Of a stretch of 64,000 nucleotides of DNA, positions 1,528 to 63,430 are shown one piece after another (position 1 is the first letter of the stretch; each line of letters opens with the position of its first letter). The stretch comes from Eublepharis macularius (lineage: Eukaryota; Chordata; Lepidosauria; Squamata; Eublepharidae). The stretch spans positions 14,466,001 through 14,530,000 of the forward strand of contig NC_072801.1 of assembly GCF_028583425.1 (NCBI RefSeq). The letters run 5' to 3'. The notes under the pieces were generated by a model. It searched no databases. It was given only the letters and a program-made list of their open reading frames with translations, and was not told where the DNA came from. A program made the position numbers and the translations under genes.

Positions 1528-2310
1528 ATATTTACTTATTTATTTATTTATGTCATTTATAGTCCACCTTTCTCACTGAGACTCAAGGCGGATTACACAG
1601 TATGAGATTAGTACAATCAGTATCAAGTACATTTCAATACAGTATCAAGGACATTTCCATAAACAATGCCATAGGGTAAATAGATACAAGTTTAAAAGAT
1701 ATAGTATTAGCAAGAATCCAATACAGAGTAGAAAAAAATACTGAAGCAGAACATAATTCTAGGACTGACATTAGGCAACATGGAGCACTGGTGGTACATA
1801 GGAGTACATATTTAAAGCAGCAGATAATAAGGCAACATAGTGATGAAGTCTATGGTCTCTAATTAATTAGCGAAGCATCTGAGACCCCATCCCTAAAATG
1901 CAGCCCTCCCATTTGAGTAAAAAGCCTTTTTTTGAATAGTTCGGTTTTGCATCGTTTACGGAAAGCCAGCAGAATGGGAGCTCTTCTGACTTCCTCAGGC
2001 AGGTCATTCCACAGGATAGGGGCCACCACAGAGAAAGCCTGTGTATGGGCTGCTGCTGACTTCACCTGTGTGCAGCCTGGCACCTGCAGGAGACCCTGTT
2101 CAGATGAGCAAAGCTGCCGTGGAGGAACACAGGGAGGGAGGCAGTCCCAAACCAAAGCCGTGCAGAACTTTGTATGTAATAACCTTGAACTGAGCACGGT
2201 AACTGATGGGTAGCCAGTGGAGCGACTGTAGGATGGGAGTGATGCTCATGCTCCTGATAACAGTCGAGCTGCAGCATTTTGCACTAATTGGAGCCTTCTA
2301 GTTAACTTAG
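1528..2310 (-). mobile_element. LINE 3' part: end of ORF2 plus 3' UTR (L2/CR1-like)
   Basis: On the minus strand an open stretch (2197-1859) encodes the C-terminal tail typical of vertebrate L2/CR1-like ORF2 proteins, with the segment FSVVAPILWNDLPEEVRR followed by FRKRCKTELFKKRLF. The 3' UTR contains CCGCCTTGAGTCTCAGTGAG and finishes in an AAATA-rich tail (plus-strand TATTTATTTATTTATG at 1535-1552). The same 3' end recurs at 24360-24712, 56014-56170 and 60375 onward. The element is 5' truncated. Confidence 0.75.
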
Positions 2311-7080: not shown

Positions 7081-8480
7081 CAGGAATGAAAGCATCACCC
7101 AAGCAGGGACTGACTTCCACTCTAAATGGTATGCATGCAGTCGACAGCTACATCCGTGGTTTAGTTCCGTGTTCTAGGAATCCTGACATTCCTTAGAAAC
7201 TTAGCTATGTCACTGAGTGAGAGAGGCTCTCTCAAAGCTAGCTTCTCTGCCAGTAACAATCTTCCTATAAAATATGCAGTTGCAGGGCAAGCTGGACATA
7301 TTTTAAAGGGTACGTGGGTAAGCTTCAAAATGTAGGCATGGTTCATGCCCTTAAATCTTCTGCCATATCCAGAATTTGTGTAATCTGTTTTTAAAAAGCT
7401 GCCTACGCTAATGGCCTTCACTGTATCTTGTGGTGGTGAGTTCCGCAAGTTAATTTTGTGTTGCATGAAGAAGTCCTTCCGGAGTCCATTGTTCTGTGCT
7501 ATCTGAAAGGCTGGAATAAATGCTGAGAATATCTCAGAGTTCTGGCAAGAGGGTCTTATTGGTGGAGGAAAAGGACCCTGAAATTTTGATACTTCAGATT
7601 AAAATCGCAGGTTTTGGCAACAGGATTTCTCAGCGACAGGCTTAGCTTGAGCAGTAATTGATTGAGGAATGTAAATACTGATATTTCAGGGAGATAAATC
7701 GCCTTGTCCTTGGAGGAAAAGCTTGCCCTGGGGAAGGGCAGGAAAAAGTATTTCTTGAAATACTTAATGGTTTCCCATCAGAAAGGAGCTGACAAGCCCA
7801 GTTATGAGAAACAGAAAGCAGAGCCAGCTTTGCAGCTTAGAAATGGACCGCTAAAAATAGCAAAACCAAACGATGACCACCAACACCAGCGTTCGCTGTT
7901 CTCCTGAGTGCCGTTTGTTTACGGATTTTGCCCACCTTTCCGTCTTTAAAGTTGTCAAAAGAAGCCTTTGTATACGTTCGAATAAAGTCTAGGGAATACG
8001 CTTTCACATGGAGGTCTTCAGAACAAACTATCACACTTCCTTGCCATCCCCTGCAGTCCGCACACTGGAGGGCCATGCCCAAGGGCCCAGGCTCTTTGAC
8101 ATCACCCTTTGGCAATGCCTCTGCCGCGGCATTTAGATGAAAAGTGAGCCCTCCCCAAAAGCATCCATTTGTCAGAATAGCCTGGAAGTGAAGCAGATAA
8201 TGTCGAGGATGCGGCTGCTGACACGTTCTTCCCATAGATCGCGGGTAGAGGACCGAAGTCATTTTACTGTCTGGTTCCTTGCAGCCAGACTCGTGTGCTC
8301 TGTAGGTATAGTTAGAGCAGCAAGGAATGTTTGTAAATACTTTACTCAGACTGCTGAAATTTTGAACTTCAAAATACAATTTTGCATTTTTAATGTGAAC
8401 ATTTTTATTGGAAATTCAGATACTCTAGACAGGCTGAGGTCTCTTGTTTTGGCAGGCATGAAACATGGGCTCTCTTAAAT
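7081..8480. other. Intergenic, nothing recognised
   Basis: No repeat or gene is recognised. A minus-strand open frame of 180 codons (8379-7837) lacks any recognisable domain. Several CpG pairs persist at 7915-8140. Could hold conserved noncoding sequence. Confidence 0.3.
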
Positions 8481-23366: not shown

Positions 23367-23739
23367 GTAGCAAAGAGTCCAGTAGCATCTTTAAGACTAA
23401 CCAACTTTATTGTAGCATGAGCTTTTGAGAGCCACAGCTCTCTTCGTCAGGTGCATCTGATGGTGCATCTGATGAAGAGAACTGTGGTCCTTGAAAGCTT
23501 ATGCTACAATAAAGTTGCATCTGATGAAGAGAGCTGTGGCTCTTGAAAGCTTATGCTACAATAAAGTTGCATCTGATGAAGAGACCTGTGGCTCTCGAAA
23601 GCTTATGCTACAATAAAGTTGCATCTGACGAAGAGACCTGTGGCTCTCGAAAGCTTATGCTACAATAAAGTTGGTTAGTCTTAAAGGTGCTACTGGACTC
23701 TTTGCTATTTTACTACTGCAGACTAACACGGCTAACTCC
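23367..23739. mobile_element. Penelope-type family-2 element with tandem core array
   Basis: Inverted left arm (23367-23455), then four tandem 52-bp units (23465-23672), then the repeat's right part ending AGACTAACACGGCTAACTCC. Bounded by a perfect 14-bp duplication AGTAAATTAACATA (23353-23366 and 23740-23753). Each unit holds CTGATGAAGAG or CTGACGAAGAG, then GAAAGCTTATGCTAC. Confidence 0.8.
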
Positions 23740-32471: not shown

Positions 32472-32564
32472 ATTGCGCTTCAGCTCTAGGCATGAAAAGT
32501 GATCGAGAGTGAAAGCACGGTGCCCTCCAACCAGTTCCTTGAGATCCACTCATCCGAAACAGCC
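32472..32564 (+). promoter_or_regulatory. PRR35: PRR35 5' UTR part of first coding exon, with uORF
   Basis: A good acceptor (TCTCTTTTCAG, AG at 32470-32471) opens the exon, so at least one upstream noncoding exon must exist. An upstream ATG at 32492 opens a six-codon reading frame that stops at 32512, 52 bases before the PRR35 ATG. This uORF may lower translation. The upstream exon and promoter were not located. Confidence 0.55.
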
Positions 32565-34186
32565 ATGTCTAAGGAAGAAGTGGGCTGTAAACTGGCATCG
32601 GTCTACAAGCATAAGGAACGCAAGCCCAAGAAACCCCACTACATCCCCAGGCCATGGGGGAAACCCTACAACTATAAGTGTTTCCAGTGTCCATTCACCT
32701 GCATGGAGAAATCCCACCTTTACAACCACATGAAGTACAGCCTCTGTAAGAACTCCCTGTCTCTGCTGATTGAGTCCGACTGGCCCTATAAGAAAGGGAA
32801 CCTTCTCCATCCAGAGCTCCGGCTCCTGCATGCCACGGAAGGATCTCGGGCCCGAGGGAGGCGGGACGAGCCTGAGGACTCGGTGGCCGTGGCTTCTGAC
32901 ACTACTAGCCCCAAGCAGGTTACGGACCAAGACAGCGGTGGTCATAAGCCTGCCTGCCCAGAAGACTCAGCTTCAGACAAGATGAATGAAGAAACCAACC
33001 AGTTCCAGGAGGAGGAAGAGGAAGAAGAGATGTCTGGATCTTTGCCAGAAGCAGGCGCTGCTGAGAAGGAGAAGGCAAGGGAGGCTGGCTGTGGCGGGGA
33101 GACTTCCGAGCCTGAAGTGAACACTCTGCTCTTCAGGTTCAAAAACAAGAGGGACAAGCCTTGCAAAGACCCTGCACCCGACTTCATCATTACTGATGTC
33201 TTCTCCTTAAAGAACCATGTAATAAAGGGAAAGGAGCCAACCCCCTTGGAGTTAGAAGCCAAACCAAAGCAATGCAGAGTGCCCAAAAAATGCCCAGCGA
33301 GCAGTGGGATCCTCATGGAACAATGGAAGCTGGTTGCCAATGGGCAAAGGAGAGGCACCGGGGATGTTCCAGCGCAGTGTCCTGATGGGAACATCATCCC
33401 TTGTTACCCTCCTCCAGCATATGGGGAATACCCCGAACCTCAAAGTCTTAACCTTTCTTTGCTGGGGATCAACTACCCACTCAACCCCAACCTCTTCTCT
33501 TATCTTGGTCCTTCTGTAGCCAGTAGCACAGCTCCACACTCACACCTGACCCAGCTACCCTTCCTGGCCTCCACAGCCCAGCTGATGCACCCGCATTCTG
33601 CTCACTTCCAGCCCCTGCAGAACTCCGAGAGGTCAGCCTTCCTCCCGCGCTTCTACTACCCCTTGCTCTTTGAGCACTCCTTCAGTTCAGCAGAAAACAA
33701 GATGGCCGCCATCAAGCCCGAGGCCCAGCAACATCTGGGCGTGGCTGTGCCCACTCCACCCCAAGCCAAAACCCCCACAGAGCCCCCGAAGGCCAGCCTG
33801 CTGAAGGTGCCAGTGTTGAAAACTAGCCTTCCTTGGGCGAAAGGTTTCCACGAAGAAGTGTCTCCTGACTCTGAGCAAAGTCACAAAGCATTGCTGCTCC
33901 AGGACGAGGAAGAGAAGTGGCTGACCCACCAGAAGGAGAGCAGCTCTTTGCCGGGTGCCAGCAACAGCCCTCGCAGAAGGCCAACAGCTGATGCCTACCG
34001 GAGCATTGTGGGTGTAAAAGATGGCACCTCCCTTCTCCCCAACAGAAAGGCTGAGCTGCCGGTGGCCTCTTGCTTGGATAGCGGCAGAACCCTGATCAAC
34101 AACTTGAAGAGGAAGTTTTCCGGAAGCGGATTTGATCTTGTGGGCTCTGATGCACCTGTGGCTGGGAAAGTCACCTACCAAGCCAG
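32565..34186 (+). CDS. PRR35: PRR35 coding exon 1: ZNF750-like zinc-finger protein
   Basis: Encodes residues 1-541 of a predicted 843-residue protein. The start MSKEEVGCK matches the length and place of the mammalian PRR35 start. The frame is open further upstream, but no earlier in-frame ATG exists in the exon. Residues 18-61 hold the hallmark shared with ZNF750: KERKPKKPHYIPRP followed by a C2HC zinc finger (C39, C42, H55, C61). Then come an acidic glutamate-rich stretch (about residues 150-160), a proline-rich region, and the family block LSLLGINYPLNPNLFSYLGP. The exon ends at CCAG/GTATTG after two bases of a codon. ZNF750 is a nuclear regulator of epidermal differentiation. PRR35 itself has no established function, so a nuclear cofactor or DNA-binding role is inference from the relative. 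The frame is intact. Confidence 0.93.
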
Positions 34187-34318
34187 GTATTGTGAGTCAT
34201 GCAGCTTCCATCCCTAATTAATGTCCTTCTCTTTGGCTTGGAAACCGCCCTATCTTATATGGTTAGCCAAGCCCTCCCCCATCTCAGCCATTTTGTGGAA
34301 GCACCCAATACTCATAAA

Positions 34319-51547: not shown

Positions 51548-51649
51548 CTCAGGACCTTTGCCAGCCCTCACAAGATCAAAATCTGCCCTCCTGAGCCTAC
51601 AGTTTTATAACTGCCTTTGATGATATTTTTGAAGCAGAGAGAGAAAGAG

Positions 51650-52750
51650 ATGGATTATACTTTGGAGGACACACAGCGCAAGGAGAAACTCCTGAGAACT
51701 GTTTACACCCTCCAAGTTAAATCCGATTCCACATTTCAAAAGGCCAGCCCACTCCTGAGCAATCACCGTGGCATGGGGATGGTGACGGAGCATCAGGTTC
51801 AAGAACTGGCTGAGAAAGCCAAAGTCATTTGCCATGACTTGGACAATATCAGAAACCACCTCTTCTATCGGCAGAATGACCTAGTACAGCAGATCCCAAA
51901 CCCCAACGGTAGCTGTTACAGTGGTGTAAGTGGAATCCATTGTACACTGGATGGATCTGTTTATGTGACTTGTGAGAGTGCCCCAAGGGTCCATGTCTTC
52001 AATCACTCAGGCCAAGTGGTTCAGTGTCTACCTTGTGTGGAATCAAAGAAGAAGGAGACCTTTTTGCCAGAGGATGTGACCCTCACCAGAGCAGGGATGG
52101 TGGCTGTAACCGACATGGTGAACAAAACCATCCGCGTTTTCAACCATCACTCAAAGTTTTCTAAGGGTGAATGGGTAAAAATTGGCCAGTTCTGTTCCCC
52201 CCGGGGAATTGGAGTGGACACTTCTGGCAAGTTACTGGTGGCGGACTACACAGAAGGCAAAGTTCATAGCTTTGCTTTGGACCACGCATTCAAGGTGCAG
52301 AGCCCTCACTCTGTATCTGACCTGTGTGGGCCGCGTTATGTGTGCGCCGCACCAGAAGGAGGGTTTGTTGTGAGTGAAGAGTGTGGTGATGTCAAACTGT
52401 TCAATAACAGTCACAAACTTCTCTTTTCCATCTGCCACAAATTCAGCCATAGTTTTGGCAACCCTGCTGGGGTATGTGCTGACAGAGAGGGCAACATCAT
52501 TGTGGCTGATGAACAGCACCGGAAAATCCACTTGTTTCCCCGAAATGGTTCCCCTATTTGCTTGGTTTCAAAAGGTCTTCAGAGACCGACTGGAATAGCT
52601 TGTTCCACTCAGGGGTTGTTATATGTTGCCGACTCTGGAGATGATAATATCAAAGTCTTCAAGTATCGGGTGAGACCCCCTTTCAATGCAGACCTTCTTT
52701 CTGCGTCCAGTGAGAGTCCAAATCTAACTCCCAGAAGGAGGGTAGAGTAG
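51650..52750 (+). CDS. NHLRC4: NHLRC4: NHL-repeat beta-propeller protein
   Basis: Single open coding exon, 366 residues from ATG 51650 (GAGATGG, a strong start context). An in-frame ATG at 51620 has a weaker context, and an acceptor (TTTGAAGCAG) lies between the two, so the exact start depends on splicing. Residues 1-85 are helical and charged. From about residue 88 six NHL blades follow. Each ends in a V-x-V-F or K-x-x-x-F type strand, for example the ADYTEGKVHSFAL, VVSEECGDVKLFN, ADEQHRKIHLFP and ADSGDDNIKVFK segments. The last 120 residues align closely with human NHLRC4 (GNVIVADEQRRQVTLFP and LFPRAGPPICLVSEGL as remembered). Human NHLRC4 is only about 123 residues, so this protein keeps a full propeller that the human one lacks. 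Function is unknown. NHL propellers usually bind protein or RNA. It lies downstream of PRR35 on the same strand, as in mammals. Confidence 0.93.
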   Translation: MDYTLEDTQRKEKLLRTVYTLQVKSDSTFQKASPLLSNHRGMGMVTEHQVQELAEKAKVICHDLDNIRNHLFYRQNDLVQQIPNPNGSCYSGVSGIHCTLDGSVYVTCESAPRVHVFNHSGQVVQCLPCVESKKKETFLPEDVTLTRAGMVAVTDMVNKTIRVFNHHSKFSKGEWVKIGQFCSPRGIGVDTSGKLLVADYTEGKVHSFALDHAFKVQSPHSVSDLCGPRYVCAAPEGGFVVSEECGDVKLFNNSHKLLFSICHKFSHSFGNPAGVCADREGNIIVADEQHRKIHLFPRNGSPICLVSKGLQRPTGIACSTQGLLYVADSGDDNIKVFKYRVRPPFNADLLSASSESPNLTPRRRVE

Positions 52751-60025: not shown

Positions 60026-60639
60026 GGATGGTATAAAAATATGTTACCAGATGTCCAGACAGACCTTTAGATTCCCCTCGTAGCAAAGTTTACTCTGTTT
60101 CCCCATCTCTATAGAATGGGCTGCCAGTAAGGGTAAGAACTGCTTCTTCCTGTGATGACACATCTTCAGGGGCCAGATTGCATGTAGTAGAAAACACATG
60201 GCCAAAATTTCTGTCTCCTTAGCACCATTCAGTTAAATAAACTTGGTGGTGTGATTTACTTCCATTGTGCTCAGTGTTCTCCCATGCTCTTCTCCACTTC
60301 AGGGCTCCTGCTTGTAAGCTCCATATCTTTAATTAAAGTGAAAGGAATGAATCCCTGAGCGAGCCTTGAAATTGGTTGGTTGTAACCTGCTTTTCTCACT
60401 GAGACTCAAGGCAGATTGCACAATGTAAAACAGTGCACTCAAAAGAGTGTGAGATATCTTTTTTTTTTTTTTTAATTTTTACACCAGACTATCACAAGGA
60501 AAGGGAAAGGACAAAGGGGGGTGGAAAAAGAAAAAGGGGGGGGGAATGAACTACAAACACTAAACACTACACTTCAATGTTTCCCTTCATACTGTCATAA
60601 TACAAAAATAGCTCCATAGAATAATGATGGAGTGGTTAA

Positions 60640-61554
60640 TCATACAGAAAATAAACATTTCAAATTCTGATTAAACTTTCCTCCCCCTTCTAGGTCCCGG
60701 ACGCAATTCTCTCTGTGCAACTGCTGTTGCGATGCTCTCCTCCTCCCCCCCCCCTCCGGCTCCTCCTTTTCTTCGTTCTTGGTGCAGCAGAGTTCTGGGT
60801 TTTTATTCTCAAAATCCTTTAGTTGATCTTCTGATAATATCTTATAGGCCTGATCTTTATATCTGAACCATATTCCTTCCGGGAATAACCATTTGTACTT
60901 TATTCCATGGTCCCTCAGAAGAGCTGCAAACTTTTTATATTTAAAACGCCGTTTCCGGACTAGAAATGGAACGTCCTTCAAAATCTTGACTTTCAAACCC
61001 ATAAAGTCCAAATCCGCATTGTATGAGTTATATAGGATGGTGTCCCGAATCTTTTTAGTTGAAAAGTCAATAATGATCTCACGAGGCAACTGTCGCTTTG
61101 TTGCATATTTTGAAGAAGCCCGACGGACCTCCAAAATGGCGCTTTTAACCTCTCCTTTAGTCGTCCTCGCGGGTGTCGCCAGTAGTTCCGAGACCAAATC
61201 CCACAGATCCTCATTTTCCTCCTCTTTCACGTTTTGGAGACGCAAAATTGTCTGCGTTCGTTCCACCTGTAGCCCGATCAGTTGGTTCTCCACCAACTTC
61301 AGCTCCTTTTTTGTAGCCTTCACAAGTGACGCACTTTCCAGAGCAGACTTTTCTGCCCCCCCCGCTGCTGCCTTAATGGTTTTCACCTCGCTTTCAATTA
61401 AGCCCACCCTTTGATCAGTTTCGTTCAGCTTGTCAACAAAGGGTTTTATGGCTTCCACCACCGCCCTGCGCACCAACTCTTCGAGCGACTCCCCTTTCTG
61501 CAAGGTGGCCGAGATTGACTTACCGAGAGCGGGACTTTGCTTCTTTGCTGCCAT
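60640..61554 (-). CDS. LINE-1 ORF1 protein (ORF1p)
   Basis: Open frame of 304 residues from ATG 61554 (context AAAAATGGC), preferred over the upstream in-frame ATG at 61578, which lies before a C run. Begins MAAKKQSPALGK. Residues about 20-105 form a coiled coil (LEELVRRAVVEAIKPFVDKL onward), as in trimeric ORF1p. The RRM-like domain follows (TILRLQNVKEEENEDLWDLV ... REIIIDFSTKKIRDTILYN), then the C-terminal domain (KILKDVPFLVRKRRFKYKK, IKYKWLFPEGIWFRYKD). ORF1p is the L1 RNA-binding nucleic-acid chaperone. The glycine- and arginine-rich tail (EEPEGGGRRRASQQQ) is longer than usual. No frame damage is seen. With no ORF2 partner, mobility would need proteins from another L1. Confidence 0.9.
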   Translation of the reverse strand: MAAKKQSPALGKSISATLQKGESLEELVRRAVVEAIKPFVDKLNETDQRVGLIESEVKTIKAAAGGAEKSALESASLVKATKKELKLVENQLIGLQVERTQTILRLQNVKEEENEDLWDLVSELLATPARTTKGEVKSAILEVRRASSKYATKRQLPREIIIDFSTKKIRDTILYNSYNADLDFMGLKVKILKDVPFLVRKRRFKYKKFAALLRDHGIKYKWLFPEGIWFRYKDQAYKILSEDQLKDFENKNPELCCTKNEEKEEPEGGGRRRASQQQLHRENCVRDLEGGGKFNQNLKCLFSV

Positions 61555-61951
61555 TTTTGGGGGGGGGGGCGCCAACAAAATTCTGGAACTCCACGAAGGG
61601 GAAGAGCGAGTCTTCTTCAGATCAACCTCTCCTTCACAAACGCTTGTAGAACAGAAGGGATTCGCTTGTTTACAGGCTTCCGCCTGTTTCTTTTACTTGC
61701 CATTTCTCGTTGCCCGGCGGCACTCGAGGCGCCGCGCACATCTGCCGGCCTCCATAGGGACAAACGGGCAATTCCCCCCCCGCATTGATTTTGGGGAGTT
61801 CTTCCCGCCGCGTCCCGGACCCTGGCTCCCTCCCTGGGAGTCCTGGGGGCTAATCCTTACGGATCAGCCGCCCGGTCAGGGTGCCCGGTCGTTTCCTCCC
61901 GGACCAGCCGAGAGGAGCGTCCGGCATGGCTGAGAAAACGAAACCGAATCC
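61555..61951 (-). promoter_or_regulatory. L1-type CpG-rich 5' UTR / internal promoter
   Basis: The sense strand is GC-rich with many CpG pairs (GCGCGGCGCCTCGAGTGCC, GGTCCGGGACGCGGCGG). It reaches the exact 5' target-duplication junction, so the insert is full length at its 5' end and could carry a pol II promoter typical of L1 5' UTRs. Promoter activity is inferred. Confidence 0.6.
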
Positions 61952-63430
61952 AAGAGTGTGAGATATCTAATAATGCAATGCAATAGGAGTAAGATTACAA
62001 AATTAGAAACAATGAGGAAAAAGTATCAGACAAAAATAAAGTGTAGTAACAGTTGTATAACAGATACAAGAAACAAATAATTCAAATCATGAACAGGGAA
62101 ATAGCCTACACACCTGTTCCCTTTACAGTAGCTCCATCTTGACTCATTCTGCTATGCTATGTCCTTGTCCCATCAAAAAGCCAATAGCTGTTCAACCAGA
62201 AAAAGACAATATAACTGAAAAGTGATTGCTGTTCAATACACATTGAAAACAGCAATACGACTAAAAAGTCATTGCTGTTCAATATTCATTAAAAACAGCA
62301 ATGTTTAATTGCTGCAGCTATATATTTACACGTATCCAATGTTGTATTACAATCCATGTTCGCTAACAGAGTAATTAAATGATAGTTAGAAGAGCTAACA
62401 GGCTTCTTATTCAAATGAGGATGAAGAAATGCTCAATAGCTTGTACTGAAGATTTGTCACAAGTACAAACTTTGGATCCCCTTTCTTGGCCTGTAAATTG
62501 TCCATATAAGTCAGCAAGTGGAAGTGAGTTCGTTCTAGCAAGGAAAAAATCTATGATAACATGCTACCATAACACTATAAAAACAATATGGTAACTGGTA
62601 TTGCTTAAAATATGAATATCCAAAATACATGGGCGAGCATACACGCCACCTCCCTGCCTGAAGACCATGCCATTTTTCTGCCGAAAGAAGGCTGCTAACC
62701 AGACTATAAGCACCAGTCTTCCCTAAAGCCAACAGAGAATCACAATCCAAATCAAATGAGTTCAGCTTATCTATGAGCAGGTGAACCCATCCAGGTTTAT
62801 AAGAATCTAATATTGACAGTGAGTGATTCCTTACTCTCTATATTAATTACAACCCAATATTTAATAACTGTTAACCAGGCTATAAGAGAAACAGACTTCT
62901 GGCCAGTTTCCATTAACAAGGAAGATGAAGCAATACATCTAGGACATGCTAAAATCGATCTAAGAAAATTTGTCTGAATTATGTCTGGGCATGTACCCGG
63001 AATACCAGTACACACCGGAATAGCATACAAAAACAGTGAGGTTATTTTTGCCTGAAATGCATCCTCAGAATTGCCTCTTAGCTTTTCATAAATATCTCCC
63101 TAGCGTGCAAAGCCCAAGAGAGTGAGCATTGGAATGTAACTCCCAGATATTTATAAGGTTGGACTTATTCCATAACATGACCTAAGATATTCCAGCGTAA
63201 TAATTTTGGCCTACAAGATCTAGCAAAAACTAAAACCTTGGATTTTTTGAAATTAATTACCAAGTGTTCATCAACACAATATTGAATGAAGATCTCTATT
63301 GATTTATGAAATCCCACTCTGGTTACTGATACCAGAGCTGTATCGCCTGCATATAGCATGACTAGAATCAGATGAGTCCCTAGCCTTGAAGGGTGCAAAG
63401 ACAGCAAATTCAATCTAGGGGCTAAATCGT

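What the first reader, a model, noticed from the sequence alone, without database searches (positions are those of the whole stretch)
60460..61951. ORF1-only L1 retrotransposon in a reptile (half-L1-like) with a perfect target duplication
Seen: 17-bp exact duplication, intact 5' UTR, 304-codon open ORF1, short 3' UTR and A tail, with no ORF2. Known: half-L1 (HAL1) elements that keep ORF1 and lose ORF2 are described from mammals and move in trans. Inference: this may be a squamate half-L1 family, or a single copy made from a deleted or prematurely ended L1 RNA. Both ends being complete separates it from ordinary 5'-truncated L1 debris.
Basis: partly seen in the sequence, partly recalled or inferred. 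Interest (0 to 1): 0.78.

Follow-up and report, generated by a model that had tools for sequence, protein, structure and literature searches.

The report
Gecko half-L1: ORF1-only jumping gene
A genome that is almost certainly the leopard gecko's carries more than a thousand copies of a jumping gene that kept only the first of the two L1 genes and must borrow the copying enzyme from other L1s; such half-L1s are described from mammals, so the same strategy seems to have arisen in a reptile.

Summary
The window copy (minus strand, 61951 to 60460) has a 17/17-nt target duplication, a complete 397-nt 5' UTR, an open ORF1 and an A-rich tail, and no ORF2. The host genome (2.24 Gb, inferred leopard gecko) holds a large family: 40 of 40 scored matches share the layout at 98-100% identity (39 from the first 5 nt, one 5'-truncated), mean pairwise distance 0.96%. 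The ORF1/3'-UTR junction occurs 1,583 times and the 5' end 2,531 times (up to 3 mismatches in 38; reversed-pattern controls 0). On contig C1 below 156.4 Mb, exact 5' and 3' ends within 15 kb lie 1.35-1.50 kb apart (37 of 37), never L1 length. The ORF1 core is open in 40 of 40; variants shared between copies are mostly synonymous (N6:S11), private ones look neutral (N26:S9). Young L1s with open ORF2 coexist, but the 8 loci read show no meaningful DNA similarity; the best ORF1 match is 27.7% identical. Best reading: a HAL1-like retrotransposon moved in trans by L1 ORF2p that still needs its own ORF1p. Unresolved: its parent, and a minority class with the same 5' UTR and ORF1 whose 3' part I could not read.

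The parts
61952..61968 (.). target-site duplication, copy at the element's 5' side
   Evidence: 17/17 identical to 60443-60459
61555..61951 (-). 5' UTR, 397 nt, complete 5' end (GGATTCGGTTTCG...), presumed internal promoter; ends in a length-variable C-run before the ATG
   Evidence: 39 of 40 scored matches start within 5 nt of the same position, one at 33; 38-mer of the 5' end found 2,531 times, control 0
60640..61554 (-). ORF1, 304 codons plus stop; codons 1-264 conserved core, then a frame-variable tail
   Evidence: 127 of 130 scored ORF1 matches in the genome have no stop
60790..61425 (-). part of ORF1 aligned to solved LINE-1 ORF1p (residues 44-255; domain names recalled: end of coiled coil, RNA-binding domain, C-terminal domain)
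   Evidence: phmmer 2yko E 1.5e-4; profile of five gecko ORF1s E 1.3e-22 to 2ykp; PF02994 E 0.0025, below its cut-off
60745..60754 (-). G-run (C-run on the + strand) whose length decides the reading frame of the ORF1 tail
   Evidence: sequence; three tail frames among 40 copies
60480..60639 (-). 3' UTR, 160 nt, with a polypyrimidine tract; no match to the L1 loci read
60460..60479 (-). A-rich tail; about 30 nt of 3' sequence present in 39 of 39 other copies are missing before it
60443..60459 (.). target-site duplication, copy at the element's 3' side

Best explanation
It is one copy of a young, probably still active, non-autonomous L1-type retrotransposon family that encodes only ORF1p. Its RNA is presumably made by RNA polymerase II from the 5' UTR, is translated into ORF1p that coats the same RNA, and is copied into the genome by the endonuclease/reverse transcriptase (ORF2p) of autonomous L1s acting in trans (target-primed reverse transcription). 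Shown: family structure, A-rich tails, target duplications, L1-type nick sites, the missing ORF2, constraint on ORF1, presence of young ORF2-bearing L1s. Inferred: promoter, trans use of ORF2p, and the need for its own ORF1p.
For: Family: 40 of 40 scored matches (of 2,732 first-look candidates) at 98-100%, 39 from position 1-5 and one from 33, to 1472 or beyond. 36 of 40 have exact duplications of 15-20 nt, all 36 different, nick consensus TY/AAAA. Counts at <=3 mismatches in 38: 5' end 2,531, ORF1 core 2,385, tail 1,880, junction 1,583, 3' UTR 1,319, 3' end 1,126; controls 0. The first 5 listed 5' ends, read downstream, have the junction in 5 of 5. 37 of 37 linked exact 5'/3' end pairs are 1.35-1.50 kb apart. 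ORF1: core open in 40 of 40; in 60 copies private N26:S9, shared N6:S11, Fisher p 0.014, shared against neutral p 0.0022. Possible helpers: ORF2 of 1260 aa, 37 of 37 scored at 99-100%; another family with many open 1258-aa frames and 16-nt duplications at the two loci read.
Against: Trans-mobilisation is not observed. The copies compared are the best-scoring ones, so open frames are over-represented. The N/S contrast rests on 17 shared variants treated as separate events. 5' ends outnumber 3' ends, 19 of 90 exact 5' ends have neither exact tail nor exact 3' UTR at the expected place, and 11 of 100 exact ORF1-core places have the exact 5' end but neither tail nor 3' UTR: a second class whose 3' part I could not read and which could contain an autonomous relative.
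Confidence: 0.86

Rival explanations
1. By-product of an autonomous L1 with the same 5' UTR and ORF1: a deleted form amplifies passively and the constraint on ORF1 is that of the parent.
For: A second class keeps the 5' UTR and ORF1 core exactly but has neither exact tail nor exact 3' UTR (11 of 100); 5' ends outnumber 3' ends.
Against: 5 of 5 five-prime ends read downstream are ORF1-only. In the one second-class locus that appears in the ORF1 search (C1:26719695) the match runs to the last query residue at 98% in a frame of a usual length (350), so tail and stop seem the same there. No exact 3' end lies within 15 kb of the 11 second-class 5' ends. The shared variants with the synonymous bias lie in junction-bearing copies.
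Confidence: 0.1
2. One-off internal deletion or prematurely ended L1 RNA.
For: Would give a single copy with both ends complete.
Against: 1,583 junctions; 36 of 40 copies with different target duplications.
Confidence: 0.01
3. Retrocopies of a domesticated host gene derived from L1 ORF1 (an L1TD1-like gene) rather than a transposon.
For: Only ORF1 is present and it looks constrained.
Against: More than a thousand copies, and 66 of 99 exact 3' UTRs have the exact 5' end at the expected spacing; variants shared by subsets of copies fit several source copies, not one gene.
Confidence: 0.03

Closest known systems
HAL1 (half-L1) of mammals (Bao and Jurka 2010; not held, known here through citing papers)
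   Same: ORF1p only, poly(A), target duplications, dependence on L1 enzymes (PMC5322556 passage); independent origins in mammals (PMC5753468 passage); maintained ORF1 coding in guinea pig (PMC3627910 passage); in rat, HAL1 keeps its internal promoter on insertion (PMC8535693 passage), as the many complete 5' ends here suggest.
   Different: Reptile host. None of the L1 loci read shares UTRs or a close ORF1, so descent from an L1 of this genome is not shown. No sequence comparison with a HAL1 was possible.
Autonomous L1 of the same genome, family of L094 (ORF1 frame 281 aa, ORF2 frame 1260 aa)
   Same: L1-type ORF1p (27.7% identity over 231 residues, 88 bits; best of 50 shuffles 20 bits), 17-nt target duplication, AATAAA close to an A-rich 3' end.
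   Different: Has ORF2. DNA comparison gave only one 25-nt match (E 8e-4, element ORF1 against L094's ORF2 stretch), which I take for chance.
L1-dependent pol II transcripts (processed pseudogenes, SVA)
   Same: Borrow ORF2p; pol II transcripts were found to need ORF1p as well (PMC2666806 abstract).
   Different: They encode no ORF1p of their own (recalled).

Membership tests
HAL1-type (half-L1) retrotransposon | encodes L1-type ORF1p | tested here: met
   2yko E 1.5e-4; five-row profile E 1.3e-22; Pfam model below its cut-off
HAL1-type (half-L1) retrotransposon | no ORF2 between ORF1 and the 3' end, in the family and not only in one copy | tested here: met
   37 of 37 linked end pairs at 1.35-1.50 kb; 84 of 92 exact tails followed by the exact 3' UTR at the expected 84 nt. 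The second class is unread.
HAL1-type (half-L1) retrotransposon | multi-copy with one shared junction | tested here: met
   1,583 places, control 0
HAL1-type (half-L1) retrotransposon | poly(A), target duplications, L1 endonuclease site | tested here: met
   36 of 40 duplications of 15-20 nt, TY/AAAA
HAL1-type (half-L1) retrotransposon | ORF1 kept by purifying selection | tested here: met
   shared N6:S11 against private N26:S9; small numbers
HAL1-type (half-L1) retrotransposon | derived from an L1 by loss of ORF2 (shares UTRs or a close ORF1 with an autonomous L1) | tested here: inconclusive
   8 L1 loci, six of them with ORF1 sequence, show no such similarity; other L1 families of the genome unread
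HAL1-type (half-L1) retrotransposon | moved in trans by L1 ORF2p | not testable with these tools
   needs an assay
a named mammalian HAL1 family (sequence membership) | sequence similarity to a Repbase HAL1 consensus | not tested
   no Repbase here

The most novel reading that the evidence does not exclude
The family is not a recent ORF2-deletion derivative but a self-standing ORF1-only lineage: an obligate parasite of L1 that has carried its own RNA chaperone long enough to diverge to under 30% protein identity from the L1s that must now move it.
Probability: 0.3. Interest if true: 0.78.

Novelty: new variant of a known kind. Interest (0 to 1): 0.62.

Why it matters
It seems to extend the half-L1 strategy beyond mammals: in the papers I could search (passages opened in six) HAL1 was named only for mammals; subscription papers and Repbase were not searched. 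The sampled copies are young, many copies are complete at the 5' end, and intact L1 families live in the same genome. That makes open questions testable: why a non-autonomous element keeps ORF1p when ORF2p is borrowed, and whether ORF1p and ORF2p of distant L1 lineages work together.

Tried and rejected
One-off deletion: rejected. 3' UTR as a piece of ORF2: in 8 L1 loci (L071-L073, L094-L098) blastn and tblastx of tail, 3' UTR and 5' UTR gave one tblastx hit (E 0.025, L071 1120-1197) and one 18-nt blastn hit (E 0.072, L073 1458-1475), both outside the L1s. Shared 3' end with a full-length L1: of the 35 best 3'-UTR matches not already I read 20, and 20 of 20 run into ORF1. Different upstream frame lengths looked like alternative 5' UTRs; of 4 read, 3 have the same 5' UTR with other C-run lengths and one is 5'-truncated just before the ATG. 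Structure prediction from the single sequence was poor (mean pLDDT 44.5); no fold search was run. The recalled Pfam accession for DUF1725 is not in the library. No rows were dropped; one search was limited to C1 below 149.6 Mb, to C1 below 128.87 Mb and to C1 below 156.4 Mb, because a pattern search lists only its first 100 places. PMC3575242 (Daphnia) mentions HAL1 only in its reference list.

Full report
What is there. On the minus strand of 60460-61951 lies a complete short L1-type element: 397-nt 5' UTR, ORF1 of 304 codons (61554-60640), 160-nt 3' UTR, A-rich tail, bounded by a 17/17-nt duplication. ORF1 residues 44-255 align to solved LINE-1 ORF1p (E 1.5e-4). A profile of five gecko ORF1s, this one included, hits the same structures at E 1.3e-22. 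Pfam's L1 RNA-binding model matches residues 116-175 with E 0.0025, under its curated cut-off. The relation is clear but distant.

Host. The window lies in an assembly of 2,236,738,225 bases in 72 contigs. Contig C6 is 145,573,841 bases. A published table gives the leopard gecko assembly a scaffold N50 of 145.57 Mb at L50 6, with 75 scaffolds (PMC13148402, passages). I take the host to be Eublepharis macularius; this is inference.

A family, not a single event. The whole element as query gave 40 scored matches of 2,732 first-look candidates, all at 98-100% identity. 39 of 40 begin at position 1-5 and one at 33; apart from the window copy itself they end at 1472. Beyond that point 39 of 39 other copies carry about 30 nt that the window copy lacks. 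Exact duplications of 15-20 nt flank 36 of 40, all 36 different, with a nick consensus TY/AAAA as for L1 endonucleases. The four without are L017, L025, L037 and L040. Mean pairwise distance is 0.96%, maximum 1.96%. Three pairs of copies are identical; in the two pairs where both duplications are known these differ, so they are separate insertions.

How many. With at most 3 mismatches in 38: 5' end 2,531, ORF1 core 2,385, ORF1 tail 1,880, junction 1,583, 3' UTR interior 1,319, 3' end 1,126; the reversed pattern gave 0 each time. As exact matches on C1 below 149.6 Mb, 84 of 92 tails are followed by the 3' UTR at the expected 84 nt, 66 of 99 3' UTRs have the 5' end at the ORF1-only spacing, and 71 of 90 5' ends have tail or 3' UTR at that spacing while 19 have neither. 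Where an exact 5' end and an exact 3' end lie on one strand of C1 below 156.4 Mb within 15 kb, the spacing is 1.40-1.50 kb in 36 and 1.35 kb in 1 of 37 cases; none is near the 6 kb of the full L1s. The first five 5' ends in contig order, read downstream, carry the junction in 5 of 5 at 97.9-99.3% identity.

Selection. All 40 copies have the first 264 codons open and without indels. In the ORF1 search 127 of 130 scored places (of 23,727 first-look candidates) have no stop and three have one TAG. Both sets are ranked by similarity, so they over-represent good copies. The better test compares variants. In 60 copies (40 full, 20 covering about the second half) private variants are N26:S9, near the neutral expectation (p 0.85), while shared variants, which arose in copies that went on to multiply, are N6:S11 (Fisher p 0.014; shared against the neutral share p 0.0022). 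The neutral shares are N 0.674, stop 0.039, S 0.287, with each transition weighted four times a transversion. The ORF1 tail is different: a G-run puts it into three frames, so it is not conserved as protein.

The helpers and the missing parent. The same genome has L1s with both frames open: one family (L071; 19-nt duplication), a second (L072, L073; 16 nt) and a third (L094; 17 nt). The ORF2 of the third gave 37 of 37 scored places at 99-100% with a 1260-aa frame, so it is young. Against the 8 L1 loci read, the element gives no DNA match in its UTRs within an L1. The whole element gave one 25-nt match to L094 (E 8e-4) and an A-tail match to L098, which I take for chance; a 25-nt match of 84% between a sister copy and L072 (E 0.003) likewise. 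Six of these loci hold ORF1 sequence. By score the nearest ORF1 is that of L094, 27.7% identical over 231 residues; L071 gives 27% over 180, L095 and L096 28-30% over 81-87, L072 and L073 nothing beyond 12 residues. Element and L1s have AATAAA or a similar A-rich stretch close to the 3' end; I count that as weak, since it may only be a polyadenylation signal. The L1 diversity of the genome was not exhausted: 150 of 83,480 reverse-transcriptase candidates were scored and 8 loci read at length.

Result against a simple story. 5' ends outnumber 3' ends, although L1-type insertions usually lose 5' ends. Of 100 exact ORF1-core places on C1 below 128.87 Mb, 82 have the exact 3' UTR at the ORF1-only spacing, 3 the tail only and 15 neither; 11 of the 15 have the exact 5' end. 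That looks like a second class with the same front and a different back. The one such locus seen in the protein search (C1:26719695) matches ORF1 to the last query residue at 98% in a frame of a usual length, so its tail and stop seem to be the same. No exact 3' end lies within 15 kb of the 11.

Mechanism. Inference from these facts and from papers: the many complete 5' ends imply a promoter inside the 5' UTR. Pol II transcripts needed ORF1p besides ORF2p in an assay (PMC2666806, abstract), and a review notes that ORF1-bearing 3'-shortened RNAs might be retrotransposed, citing a cell-culture construct and HAL1 (PMC4859970, passage). An RNA that brings its own ORF1p therefore needs only ORF2p in trans, which explains both the missing ORF2 and the constrained ORF1. 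For mammalian HAL1 the same was argued from guinea pig copies (PMC3627910, passage), and rat HAL1 is said to keep its internal promoter on insertion (PMC8535693, passage).

Place among known things. It works like, and meets the tested structural features of, a half-L1 (HAL1). Descent from an L1 of this genome is not shown, and its relation to named mammalian HAL1 families was not tested: Repbase was not at hand and Bao and Jurka 2010 is not held. My paper searches showed HAL1 named only for mammals. I rate it a new variant of a known kind.

Noticed in passing
contig C1 of the host genome, 5' ends at 14300632, 26719302, 27275646, 29416083, 56645394, 86662243, 86751026, 87064366, 102993491, 109555378, 109803087: Second class: exact 5' end and exact ORF1 core but neither exact tail nor exact 3' UTR. 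Could be another ORF1-only subfamily or the autonomous parent.
   Followed up: partly
window 23464-23673: Tandem array of a 52-nt unit; the flank of L102 shows a similar GCATCTGACAAAGAGAGCTGTG..TCTCGAAAGCT array. Perhaps one of the SINE-derived satellites of scaled reptiles (PMC10702118, start of abstract in a listing).
   Followed up: no
window 32499-34214, + strand: Long open frame with a zf-C2H2_7 domain (E 1.5e-29); recalled as a PRR35/ZNF750-like gene.
   Followed up: no
window 51617-52747, + strand: Open frame with NHL repeats (E 2.3e-21); recalled as NHLRC4-like.
   Followed up: no
window 1859-2197, - strand: Open frame that looks by eye like the C-terminal end of an L2/CR1-type reverse transcriptase (recalled); no Pfam match.
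   Followed up: no
L037, 5' junction: The left flank repeats the first bases of the element just before its start: a tandem 5' end or nested insertion. The copy is otherwise identical to L033.
   Followed up: no
L071 flanks (785-1951 and 7173-7769): The L1 of this locus sits between long open frames that read by eye like a gag-type gene, with a 19-nt duplication.
   Followed up: no
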